A stretch of 64,000 nt of DNA from Leptolyngbya sp. BL0902 (GTDB lineage Bacteria; Cyanobacteriota; Cyanobacteriia; Phormidesmidales; Phormidesmidaceae). The notes under the pieces are model-generated. The model ran no database searches. It was not told the DNA's origin and worked only from the letters and a program-made list of their open reading frames with translations. Shown here in pieces: positions 14,425-22,020 of the stretch (the stretch's first letter is position 1; the number at the start of each line of letters is the position of its first letter). The stretch is from the NCBI RefSeq assembly GCF_016403105.1, contig NZ_CP046155.1:930001-994000 (forward strand), in the 5' to 3' direction. The translations under genes were made by a program, and so were the position numbers.

Positions 14425-15618
14425 TTAGTGGTGGTGGCCGTGATCGTGGTGGTGACCGTGATCGTGGTGATGACCGTGATCGTGACCGTGGTGATGGCCT
14501 TGGACGGCGGCGGCTTGCACGGCGGCAAGGCTGGGATTCACGGCTAGGGCTTCGGCCTCTAGTAGGTCGGCGATGGGCTTATCGGCCCAGGTCGCGGCCA
14601 TGGCCAAAAATTCGGGATGGTCGTTGACGCAGGGCATTTGCACGTAGGTCACATCCGGGCGGCGGCGGCGCAAACCGCTGATGATGTGCTCCACATCCAG
14701 CAGGGTTTCGTGGTTTTCGGTGGCAAAGCCGATGGGCATAAACACCAAGGCAGTGGCCCCCAGGTCAATCAAATTGCGGGCGGCGAGATCGGCATTGGGC
14801 TGCGTCCATTTGATGAGTGGTGTGTCGTGGTTGAGCCAGCCCACGGAAATCAGCGGATACTTTTGGATCAGCCTATCCCGCACCCGGTCATAGAGCTTTT
14901 GGCTTTCGTCGATGCCGGAGGTGAAGCCCTTGGCCTCGTGGGGGCAACCGTGGTTCATCAGCACAATGCCCGTTTGGGACGGCAGGTGGGCGACGGCCAA
15001 ATCCTGGCGAATTTTGTCCTCAACGATGCGGGCCAGCAGGTCGATGTAAGCTGTTTCATCGAAAAACGAGGGAATATAGCGCATTCCCTTCACCCAGTGC
15101 TCCGTACCGTCCGCAAGCTTCGTTAAGGCTCCGTTGACCTGCTCTACCGCAATGCCGCTGGTAAAAATAGAATCCACCACCAGCAGGGGATAGATCAGCA
15201 GCTTGTCGAAACCCTCCTGCTTAACTTGCTCTAGCACCTGCTCCGGCAGAAAGGGTTTGCAGAAGTTGAAGGCCTTAAATACCTTCACCCGATCCCCCCA
15301 GCGCTGCTTCAGTTGGGCCTCAATGCCCGCCCGCTGGGCCTCAAAAATGGCGTTGTGGGGCGAAATAAAGTTGCCGTGCTGGTGGCTCCATTCGTGCAAA
15401 TCAAAGGCCGCCAACAGCTTAGCCAAGGGGGGATAGACCCAGGTAGGCACCGGGGCAAACTTAGCCGTCAGCAAATTCAGCGCTTGCTCGTTGTAGTTGG
15501 CAAAGTCGTCGTAGCTTTCCACTTCGCCATAGCCCATCAGCAGCACCGCCACCCGGTTTTCGCCGGACGCCGCCGTAAAGGTCTCTGCACTTTGGATAAT
15601 ATCGGGGGTTGCAACCAT
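14425..15618 (-). CDS. ferrochelatase-like protein with histidine-rich C-terminal tail
   Basis: A 397-residue class II chelatase-like protein. The N-terminal VAVLLMGYGEVESYDDF, central LLIYPLLVVDSIFTSGIAV, VLMNHGCPHEAKGF and C-terminal FMPIGFATENHETLLDVEHI follow the ferrochelatase layout, with the metal-site His (NHGCP) and the Glu/His of ATENHETL visible. It differs from the usual cyanobacterial HemH, lacking the hydrophobic CAB-type tail. Instead the last 24 residues are nearly all His, Gly and Asp (HHHGHDHGHHHDHGHHH), a likely metal-storage or delivery segment. It may insert Fe, Co or Ni into a tetrapyrrole; which one cannot be read from sequence. Confidence 0.75.
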   Translation of the reverse strand: MVATPDIIQSAETFTAASGENRVAVLLMGYGEVESYDDFANYNEQALNLLTAKFAPVPTWVYPPLAKLLAAFDLHEWSHQHGNFISPHNAIFEAQRAGIEAQLKQRWGDRVKVFKAFNFCKPFLPEQVLEQVKQEGFDKLLIYPLLVVDSIFTSGIAVEQVNGALTKLADGTEHWVKGMRYIPSFFDETAYIDLLARIVEDKIRQDLAVAHLPSQTGIVLMNHGCPHEAKGFTSGIDESQKLYDRVRDRLIQKYPLISVGWLNHDTPLIKWTQPNADLAARNLIDLGATALVFMPIGFATENHETLLDVEHIISGLRRRRPDVTYVQMPCVNDHPEFLAMAATWADKPIADLLEAEALAVNPSLAAVQAAAVQGHHHGHDHGHHHDHGHHHDHGHHH

Positions 15619-20108: not shown

Positions 20109-21386
20109 TTAACGAAAGGCTGGAGAGGCCACCCAAAAGCTAATCAAAAATCCAGCAATGGTGGAGAACGTCACGGAGCCGCCGCCCATTTCGTAGGCTT
20201 CGGGCATCATGGTGCTGGCCACCATGGCGAGGATAGCACCGCCAGCGGTGGCCTGGGCCACATCCACCACCCAGGGAGTTGTAAACCCGACCATCAGGCT
20301 ACCCAAAAGGGCCATGAGACCACTCAAGAGAACGGCTCCGCCCCATAGCCCAAGGATGCGTCGGGAGGAGGTTCCGGCCTGCTTCATCCCCAGGGAACTG
20401 GACATGGCTTCGGGAATGTTGGAGATAAACACTGCCAGCAAGAAGGATGATCCGGCGTGGCCCACCCCGGCATTGAACCCAATGACCAGGGCTTCGGGAA
20501 TATTGTCGATGAGGGTGCCCACCAGAATAGCCAGGGGGGCAGAGCTTTGGGCAAGCTCCTGAAATTGATGTTCGGACAGCGGAATATCAACTTCTACGCT
20601 GTCTAGAACGCGCTGCCGCCAGTGGTCATCATCGGCGGGCTTGAAGCGAGCGGTGGACTGGGTGGTTTCCCGCAGGCGACGGGCCAAAATGCGGCTGAGC
20701 CCGCTAGCCATTTGGGGCGAATGGGTAATCATGGTGTCAAAGTCGCCCTTACCCAGTTCGTAGAGATCCATGGGGGTTTTAGCAATGACGGTGGCGGAGC
20801 GATCTTCCCCGGTGAGTAGGGCCATTTCCCCAAACATTTCCCCGGCCCCTAGTTCGGCCATCAGTTTGGAGTCTTTATAAATTTCGGCGTCGCCTTCCAC
20901 AATTAAGAACATGGCGTTGCCCGGTGCCCCCTCCCGGCAGAGCACCGTCCCCGGCTCTACGGAGAGCGGTTTGAGCAAGGGAATAATGGCCTGCATTTCC
21001 GAAGGCGACAGGCTGTGTAAGACTTCGATGTGCTCAATGCGATCCAGCACTTCCGAGGCTTCTTCCTGGCGATGGTGGTAGAGAAAACGCCGGGAGGAGG
21101 AGGGGTGGCGGATAAACCCACCCTGGTTGTCGATGTAGTTGACCAGAACCGTAAACAGGGTGCCGCCTAGGGCAAAGCCCACCACCAGGGGCCAAAAACC
21201 GCTGCTTTGGAAGACGGGCAGCGTAATATCAAAGGCAATGGCGGAAATGAGGGTGCCACTGCCGAAGGCCATCACTGCCGCTGTGAAGGATCGTCCTGGT
21301 TGCCAGCCAATGCCAAGGACGGCCCCCACCAAGAGGCTGGAGGCAGCAAGTAACCCTTGGATCAGGGCGGTTAAGGAAGAGCTCAT
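20109..21386 (-). CDS. ZIP-like membrane permease interrupted by a cyclic-nucleotide-binding domain
   Basis: A 425-residue membrane protein with three N-terminal hydrophobic segments (about 5-25, 33-55, 63-85), then a soluble insert at about 115-240, then four or five more membrane segments. The insert is a CNBD/Crp-type domain: EPGTVLCREGAPGNAMFLIV, GAGEMFGEMALLTGEDRSAT. The flanking halves read like a ZIP transporter, with GTLIDNIPEALVIGF and FISNIPEAMSS at the positions of the HNxPEG and HExPE metal motifs; His is replaced by Asp or Asn. The CNBD takes the place of the variable cytoplasmic loop after helix 3. A cNMP-gated or docking-regulated metal permease is a reasonable inference. Confidence 0.75.
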   Translation of the reverse strand: MSSSLTALIQGLLAASSLLVGAVLGIGWQPGRSFTAAVMAFGSGTLISAIAFDITLPVFQSSGFWPLVVGFALGGTLFTVLVNYIDNQGGFIRHPSSSRRFLYHHRQEEASEVLDRIEHIEVLHSLSPSEMQAIIPLLKPLSVEPGTVLCREGAPGNAMFLIVEGDAEIYKDSKLMAELGAGEMFGEMALLTGEDRSATVIAKTPMDLYELGKGDFDTMITHSPQMASGLSRILARRLRETTQSTARFKPADDDHWRQRVLDSVEVDIPLSEHQFQELAQSSAPLAILVGTLIDNIPEALVIGFNAGVGHAGSSFLLAVFISNIPEAMSSSLGMKQAGTSSRRILGLWGGAVLLSGLMALLGSLMVGFTTPWVVDVAQATAGGAILAMVASTMMPEAYEMGGGSVTFSTIAGFLISFWVASPAFR

Positions 21387-21480: not shown

Positions 21481-22020
21481 ATGAATCGCGTATCCCGGCG
21501 GTTGTCTCGCCCAAACTCTCCCCCCCCAGCTAAGCGTCGTCGTCCAGGAACAGGGGCAGGGCTAGTGATTCTCTGCGGTTTGATCTACAGCCTCGTCGGC
21601 TTTTTAGTAACGGCGTTGCCCCCCGTGCCTTGGCTGTGGCCTGTGGTCTTGGTGGCGCTGGGGCTGCACATTGGGGCCGTCTCTTGGATGGCAGCCTCGG
21701 CGGGGGGCTGGCTGGCTCGCCTGGGCACTGGCTTACTGCAAACCCTAGCGGCCCTGGGGCTGGTGGTTCCCCTGGCGGTGGCCTTAAACTACATCGGCAG
21801 CGACCAACTCAACGACATCGCCGTTTCCGGTGCGATGGGCCAGGTGATCCTCCTGAGCCTGGGGGCCGTGGCAGTGGCCTTGGTGTGTCGATGGGCGACC
21901 CATCGTCTCAGCCAACAGTTGCTAGCCCGTCTGCCCCGTCGCCAAATGCGCGGGGTGCTGGCCCTAGTGGGGGTCGTCGGCCTCACCCTGGGCGGCGCGG
22001 CTGGGCTGCTGCTGCCCTAG
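21481..22020 (+). CDS. hypothetical membrane protein
   Basis: The 179-residue protein has a basic, Pro-rich N-terminus (RRLSRPNSPPPAKRRRPGTG) and four hydrophobic segments: about 26-46, 50-70, 82-102 and 118-138, with a further one at about 158-178. No catalytic motif is seen and I do not recognise the family. The positive N-terminus suggests an N-in topology. It is divergent from the ZIP-CNBD gene, 94 bases apart, so the two may share a regulatory region. Confidence 0.65.
   Translation: MNRVSRRLSRPNSPPPAKRRRPGTGAGLVILCGLIYSLVGFLVTALPPVPWLWPVVLVALGLHIGAVSWMAASAGGWLARLGTGLLQTLAALGLVVPLAVALNYIGSDQLNDIAVSGAMGQVILLSLGAVAVALVCRWATHRLSQQLLARLPRRQMRGVLALVGVVGLTLGGAAGLLLP

What the first reader, a model, noticed from the sequence alone, without database searches (positions are those of the whole stretch)
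20109..21386. ZIP-like permease with cyclic-nucleotide domain in the helix 3-4 loop
The loop that in ZIP proteins binds metal and governs turnover is replaced by a full CNBD. The two metal motifs read DNIPEA and SNIPEA rather than HNxPEG/HExPE, so either the ion differs or transport is lost. It suggests direct cAMP or cGMP control of a permease in cyanobacteria.
Basis: partly seen in the sequence, partly recalled or inferred. Interest (0 to 1): 0.6.

Follow-up and report, generated by a model that had tools for sequence, protein, structure and literature searches.

The report
ZIP metal permease with built-in cAMP sensor
This cyanobacterial gene encodes a ZIP-family metal-ion transporter with a complete cAMP/cGMP-binding domain inserted in its main cytoplasmic loop; the same design occurs in several bacterial phyla, so metal transport in these organisms may be switched directly by a second messenger, which has not been tested.

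Summary
The ORF (20109-21386, minus strand, 425 aa) is three membrane helices, a full cyclic-nucleotide-binding domain (CNBD, about residues 118-242), then five more helices. The membrane part is a true but divergent ZIP: it scores below Pfam's cut-off, yet BbZIP entries are the only significant solved-structure hits (E about 1e-9) and hhalign against canonical ZIPs gives E 2e-15. The CNBD keeps the phosphate-binding Glu187 and Arg196. It sits in the TM3-4 loop, cytosolic by the positive-inside rule, so it faces cellular cAMP. All parts are under purifying selection. The design is not only cyanobacterial: single-CNBD versions occur in Chloroflexi, Spirochaetes and a deltaproteobacterium, double-CNBD versions in Proteobacteria and cyanobacteria. 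The membrane-domain tree puts them all on one branch (100/100). The odd metal motifs (Asp for His177, Ser for Gln207) are shared with CNBD-less relatives, so they precede the insertion. Asp294, Glu298, Asn323, Glu326 and an acid at position 53 are kept in 64 of 64 sequences, which argues for retained metal handling. Best reading: an elevator-type permease for a hard divalent cation, gated by cAMP or cGMP. Ligand binding, ion and direction of control are untested. I found no description in the papers searched.

The parts
20109..21386 (-). whole gene, CNBD-ZIP permease, 425 aa plus stop
   Evidence: ORF; Pfam; homologues
21126..21380 (-). TM1-TM3 of the ZIP domain (residues 3-87)
   Evidence: AlphaFold2 model helices 3-27, 32-62, 65-87
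21228..21230 (-). Asp53 in TM2, position of BbZIP Ser106; D or E in 64 of 64 rows
21036..21119 (-). helical connector from TM3 into the CNBD (residues 90-117)
   Evidence: model helices 90-93 and 95-117
20661..21035 (-). cyclic-nucleotide-binding domain (about residues 118-242)
   Evidence: Pfam cNMP_binding 142-221; Foldseek to M. loti CNBD 33-35% identity, rmsd 2.1-2.7 for most chains
20793..20834 (-). phosphate-binding cassette FGEMALLTGEDRSA (residues 185-198), with Glu187 and Arg196
   Evidence: Arg in 51 of 51 and Glu in 51 of 52 rows with a residue there
20574..20660 (-). flexible linker from CNBD to TM4 (residues 243-271)
   Evidence: pLDDT under 50 at 243-252 and 264-270
20115..20573 (-). 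TM4-TM8 of the ZIP domain (residues 272-424)
   Evidence: model; profile alignment to BbZIP
20490..20507 (-). TM4 metal motif DNIPEA (BbZIP H177-N178-x-x-E181 positions)
20406..20423 (-). TM5 metal motif SNIPEA (BbZIP Q207-D208-x-x-E211 positions)

Best explanation
It is an elevator-type ZIP permease for a divalent cation whose activity is set by cAMP or cGMP binding to a cytosolic CNBD inserted between TM3 and TM4. Shown by sequence and model: ZIP homology, CNBD with intact phosphate cassette, position of the insertion, conservation, one origin. Inferred: TM3 belongs to the scaffold and TM4 to the moving domain, so a CNBD joined to TM3 by a helix and to TM4 by a loose linker can act as a lid or brake on the inward vestibule, the place where the His loop of BbZIP acts as a Zn sensor. 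By analogy with other CNBD proteins, the empty CNBD most likely holds the transporter back and nucleotide binding releases it. The carboxylate- and amide-rich site without His points to a hard ion (Mn2+ or Fe2+ more likely than Zn2+). Both the direction of control and the ion are guesses.
For: ZIP: PDB profile search finds five distinct BbZIP sequences (E 1.4e-9 to 1.9e-8) and otherwise only one chance-level chain; hhalign to canonical ZIPs prob 98.5, E 2e-15; Zip matched in 56 of 64 family members, best 3.2e-13, and a double-CNBD member passes the cut-off at 39.5 bits. CNBD; Arg196 in 51 of 51 rows with a residue there. Cytosolic side: mean K+R 1.7, 5.9 and 2.5 in the first three predicted inner loops against 0 to 0.5 outside. 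Transport site kept: D294, E298, N323, E326 and D/E53 in 64 of 64. Purifying selection on every part. The genome has 11 class III cyclase matches over the cut-off. The loop as a control site in ZIPs: PMC10256678. BbZIP residue roles and the two-domain elevator: PMC9873690.
Against: No biochemical data. M99, Q207, E240 and E276 of BbZIP are replaced (L46, S322, S355, T392), so the second metal site and the exit site are not conserved in the BbZIP form. No conserved neighbour or riboswitch names an ion. Double-CNBD relatives have mostly lost the cassette Arg, so the domain can persist without canonical nucleotide binding. Foldseek of the TM4-8 fragment ranks BbZIP first but with weak E (0.06) and rmsd 8.
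Confidence: 0.57

Rival explanations
1. It is a metal receptor rather than a transporter: the ZIP fold binds an ion but no longer moves it, and the CNBD links that state to cAMP signalling.
For: Four BbZIP pathway residues are replaced; TM7 Glu276, critical for Zn transport in BbZIP (PMC10256678), is an invariant Thr here.
Against: The same replacements are present in CNBD-less relatives that have no other domain to signal through; an acid is present in TM2 at the proposed entrance position (BbZIP S106, PMC9873690) in all 64 sequences.
Confidence: 0.17
2. The transporter works, but the CNBD is a structural or dimerising module, or binds another ligand, and does not respond to cAMP or cGMP.
For: Double-CNBD relatives (L017, L103) lack the cassette Arg in both domains (sequences); CNBD-fold proteins that do not bind nucleotide exist (own knowledge).
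Against: Glu and Arg of the cassette are kept in the cyanobacterial single-CNBD rows; the domain is as constrained as the membrane part; 33-35% identity to the M. loti channel CNBD, which binds cAMP and cGMP.
Confidence: 0.2
3. The membrane domain is not a ZIP but an unrelated eight-helix protein that resembles it by chance.
For: The Zip score of the window protein is below Pfam's cut-off.
Against: Profile and profile-profile searches agree on ZIP only; the motifs align position by position with BbZIP.
Confidence: 0.03

Closest known systems
BbZIP / ZupT (GufA subfamily of ZIP)
   Same: eight-helix fold, PE motifs in TM4 and TM5, bridging Glu181 and Glu211, the TM3-4 loop as a regulatory site
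   Different: H177 is Asp, Q207 is Ser, D208 is Asn, E240 is Ser, E276 is Thr, S106 is Asp or Glu; no DxxxPHxH zinc sensor; a CNBD instead in that loop
CNBD-less xDGIPES / SNxPEG ZIPs (annotated 'ZIP family zinc transporter' in several plasmid records, e.g. Deinococcus, Rhizobium)
   Same: same changed metal motifs, about 40-50% identity in the membrane part, nearest neighbours of the CNBD-bearing clade in the tree
   Different: no inserted domain, about 250 aa; function also uncharacterised as far as I could find
M. loti MloK1 (mll3241) and SthK channels
   Same: membrane transport protein with a CNBD of the same type, close cassette
   Different: channels with a C-terminal CNBD; here a ZIP carrier with the CNBD inside the membrane domain
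CNNM magnesium transport mediators
   Same: metal transport protein with a CNBD-like fold (three family members hit the CNNM CNBH model weakly)
   Different: unrelated membrane domain; C-terminal CNBH domain (Pfam name)
MFS transporters fused to CNBD (noted in review PMC10710835)
   Same: plug-in regulatory domain on a carrier
   Different: other transporter family; fusions there are noted as a class, not a ZIP loop insertion

Membership tests
ZIP (PF02535) | profile match | tested here: met
   Sub-threshold for the single protein (24.1 of 35.1 bits), met by PDB profile search, hhalign and family-wide scan
ZIP (PF02535) | eight helices with a 3+5 split at a cytosolic loop | tested here: met
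   model and charge bias
ZIP (PF02535) | TM4 and TM5 PE motifs with two bridging Glu | tested here: met
   E298 and E326 in 64 of 64
ZIP, GufA/ZupT type | His in TM4 (HNxPEG) and His or Gln in TM5 | tested here: not met
   D294 and S322
ZIP, GufA/ZupT type | NCBIfam ZupT equivalog cut-off | tested here: not met
   window protein gives no ZupT hit; CNBD-less relatives reach 32-48 of 252 bits
BbZIP-type intracellular Zn sensor | DxxxPHxH in the TM3-4 loop | tested here: not met
   0 of 64 rows
ZIP | divalent metal transport | not testable with these tools
   needs flux assay
CNBD (PF00027) | profile above cut-off, beta-roll with cassette helix and helices B and C | tested here: met
   73.7 bits against a cut-off of 27.5; DSSP and Foldseek
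CNBD (PF00027) | cassette Glu and Arg for cNMP | tested here: met
   Glu187, Arg196
CNBD (PF00027) | binds cAMP or cGMP | not testable with these tools
   needs binding assay

The most novel reading that the evidence does not exclude
An ancient class of second-messenger-gated metal carriers, spread over several bacterial phyla, in which a CNBD between scaffold and moving domain of a ZIP elevator switches uptake of a hard divalent metal, with a later branch that doubled the CNBD and mostly lost canonical nucleotide binding.
Probability: 0.45. Interest if true: 0.75.

Novelty: new variant of a known kind. Interest (0 to 1): 0.52.

Why it matters
If right, it would be a direct link between cAMP or cGMP and metal uptake at the level of the carrier itself, without transcription, in photosynthetic bacteria with a high metal demand. 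It also offers a ZIP in which the poorly understood TM3-4 regulatory loop is a well-known ligand-binding module, so allosteric control of a ZIP elevator could be switched on and off by a small molecule in the test tube.

Tried and rejected
Gene neighbours: the divergent 179-aa gene at 21481-22020 is kept in 17 of 42 loci compared, all of them near relatives of the window; no partner is shared across phyla. The lead that Synechocystis slr0593, listed as 'cAMP binding membrane protein' in PMC3516471, is the homologue came from memory; I could not verify it, and gene order around a homologue in a genome grouped with Synechocystis (next to genes that read as dapB and chlH) gives it no support, so it is not used. 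Foldseek of the whole model listed only CNBD-containing entries in its top 50, so TM4-8 was folded apart: BbZIP chains take ranks 1-4 but at weak E. Literature searches for ZIP with CNBD gave nothing relevant; two papers opened on transporter regulation and ZIP evolution do not describe it; the library lacks most subscription papers. One early alignment (A1) held a stray ten-residue dummy row by mistake; it was replaced by A2 and nothing rests on it.

Full report
Observation. The ORF 20109-21386 (minus strand) encodes 425 aa. Pfam finds cNMP_binding at 142-221 (E 1.2e-20) and a sub-threshold Zip match at 271-364 (E 2.5e-5); cutting the CNBD out raises the Zip match to 4.6e-7, still below the gathering score. 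No NCBIfam model covers the protein; its hits are CNBD matches far below cut-off.

Membrane domain. A profile of eight family membrane domains hits five distinct BbZIP sequences in the PDB (E 1.4e-9 to 1.9e-8; entries 8j1m, 5tsa/5tsb/8czj, 8ght, 7z6m/7z6n, 6pgi) and otherwise one chance-level chain. hhalign against canonical ZIPs from the phylum gives probability 98.5 and E 2e-15. Across a 64-sequence family alignment, 56 members match Zip at E 0.001 or better, best 3.2e-13, and the double-CNBD member L017 passes the gathering score (39.5 bits). In its own genome this gene is the only Pfam Zip match.

Metal site. The alignment maps BbZIP M99 to L46, S106 to D53, H177 to D294, N178 to N295, E181 to E298, Q207 to S322, D208 to N323, E211 to E326, E240 to S355, E276 to T392 and E280 to E396. 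In the 64-row alignment L46, D294, E298, N323, E326, T392 and E396 do not vary, and position 53 is always Asp or Glu. In BbZIP, S106 and Q207 are proposed to form an entrance metal site in the outward-facing state (PMC9873690), so an invariant acid there fits a pathway re-tuned towards hard ligands. The exit residue E276, critical for Zn transport in BbZIP (PMC10256678), is lost. The set looks like a changed specificity rather than decay, but this is inference.

CNBD. The AlphaFold2 model (mean pLDDT 83.5) shows helices 3-27, 32-62 and 65-87, a helical connector, a CNBD with cassette helix 187-192 and helices 213-222 and 224-242, a low-confidence linker (243-252 and 264-270 under 50), then five membrane helices. 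Foldseek matches include PKA RI-alpha (26% identity, rmsd 1.8) and the M. loti channel CNBD (33-35% identity, rmsd 2.1-2.7 for most chains). The cassette FGEMALLTGEDRSAT holds Glu187 and Arg196; Arg is present in 51 of 51 rows with a residue at that column and Glu in 51 of 52. Arginine and lysine lie almost only in predicted inner loops: mean 1.7, 5.9 and 2.5 in loops 1-2, 3-4 (before the CNBD) and 5-6, against 0.0, 0.5, 0.1, 0.1 and 0.1 in the outer segments; loop 7-8 has none. This places the CNBD in the cytosol. The same genome has 11 class III cyclase matches over the cut-off.

Distribution and history. In the genus, 25 of the 27 other genomes carry a homologue at 79-92% identity, one of them with a frame break (G022). 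In a phylum-wide sample of 386 genomes the homologues are patchy: eight long single-CNBD-type hits (60-100% identity, the window's own included) and two about 610-630 aa long (sequences). A scan of 84,980 species genomes found 392 relatives, of which the best were kept (77 loci): single-CNBD forms in cyanobacteria, Chloroflexi (L094, L100, L101), a deltaproteobacterium (L095), Spirochaetes (L096, L098, L099) and an unclassified bacterium (L097); about 600-aa forms in alpha- and gammaproteobacteria (L102-L104); and CNBD-less forms in Actinobacteria, Firmicutes, Planctomycetes and Proteobacteria. Pfam finds two CNBDs in L017 and L102. A maximum-likelihood tree of the membrane domain alone (75 rows, 245 columns) puts all CNBD-bearing proteins plus L106 on one branch (100/100), with the double forms on one branch inside it (100/98). 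The simplest history is one insertion, one duplication and one loss (L106, which has a 133-residue instead of a 75-86-residue spacing before the TM4 motif). Holding the CNBD-bearing rows together without L106 is disfavoured (p-AU 0.011), as expected if L106 lost the domain; that group was, however, chosen for its trait, and L106 is a long branch. Most of the non-cyanobacterial records are MAGs, so single taxon labels could be wrong.

Selection. Against the closest homologue dN/dS is 0.054 for the whole gene, 0.042 for the CNBD and 0.071 for TM4-8; against five others the whole-gene value is 0.07-0.12. dS is often saturated and could not be estimated for two pairs. All parts are maintained.

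Metal motifs and the CNBD are separate changes. The CNBD-less relatives already have D-x-x-P-E-S and S-N-x-P-E-G and lack the DxxxPHxH sensor (0 of 64 rows). So the CNBD was added to a ZIP that had already changed its metal site and lacked the His loop; it did not replace a metal-binding loop in this lineage.

Mechanism. In BbZIP the TM3-4 loop folds into the inward vestibule and down-regulates uptake when Zn is high (PMC10256678), and transport is by an elevator movement of one helix group against another (PMC9873690). A CNBD rigidly joined to TM3 and loosely joined to TM4 is well placed to lock or free that movement. That nucleotide binding releases inhibition is an analogy with other CNBD proteins, not a result. 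No neighbour or riboswitch identifies the ion.

Degeneration in the double forms. By reading the sequences, the second CNBD of L102, L103 and L017 has His where the cassette Arg should be; the first has Arg only in L102 (GAPRATYAV), His in L017 and Phe in L103. This suggests loss or change of ligand in that branch and offers a natural contrast to the strictly conserved single forms.

Verdict. A real, conserved and apparently undescribed domain architecture: a new variant of the ZIP family, probably regulated by a cyclic nucleotide. The function is inferred.

Noticed in passing
L066 / G022:C641: The homologue in this Nodosilinea MAG is split near residue 338-340 (frame shift or stop); it could be a pseudogene or an assembly error.
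   Followed up: partly
L080 (MAG 'Candidatus Gracilibacteria' SU_1_2): The homologue sits beside that of Hydrococcus in the tree on very short branches, so the contig is probably misbinned cyanobacterial DNA.
   Followed up: partly
L127:1606-2061: A 151-aa CNBD-less ZIP relative in genome G002 seems to lack the stretch from TM3 to TM6 that holds the metal motifs; internal deletion.
   Followed up: no
L126:2108-2803: Another divergent CNBD-less ZIP (motifs LDGIPEN and SNLPEA) beside a cytochrome P450-like gene in genome G002.
   Followed up: no
window 14425-15618: Ferrochelatase/CbiX-family protein with a long His-rich C-terminal tail, suggesting a nickel or cobalt chelatase or metal store.
   Followed up: no
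window 21481-22020: 179-aa protein with no Pfam match, apparently hydrophobic, divergent from the ZIP gene and kept beside it in 17 of the loci examined.
   Followed up: partly
PMC3516471, slr0593: Synechocystis gene named 'cAMP binding membrane protein', with a co-varying antisense RNA, falls about 2.5-fold at 3-12 h of iron starvation; relation to this family not established.
   Followed up: partly
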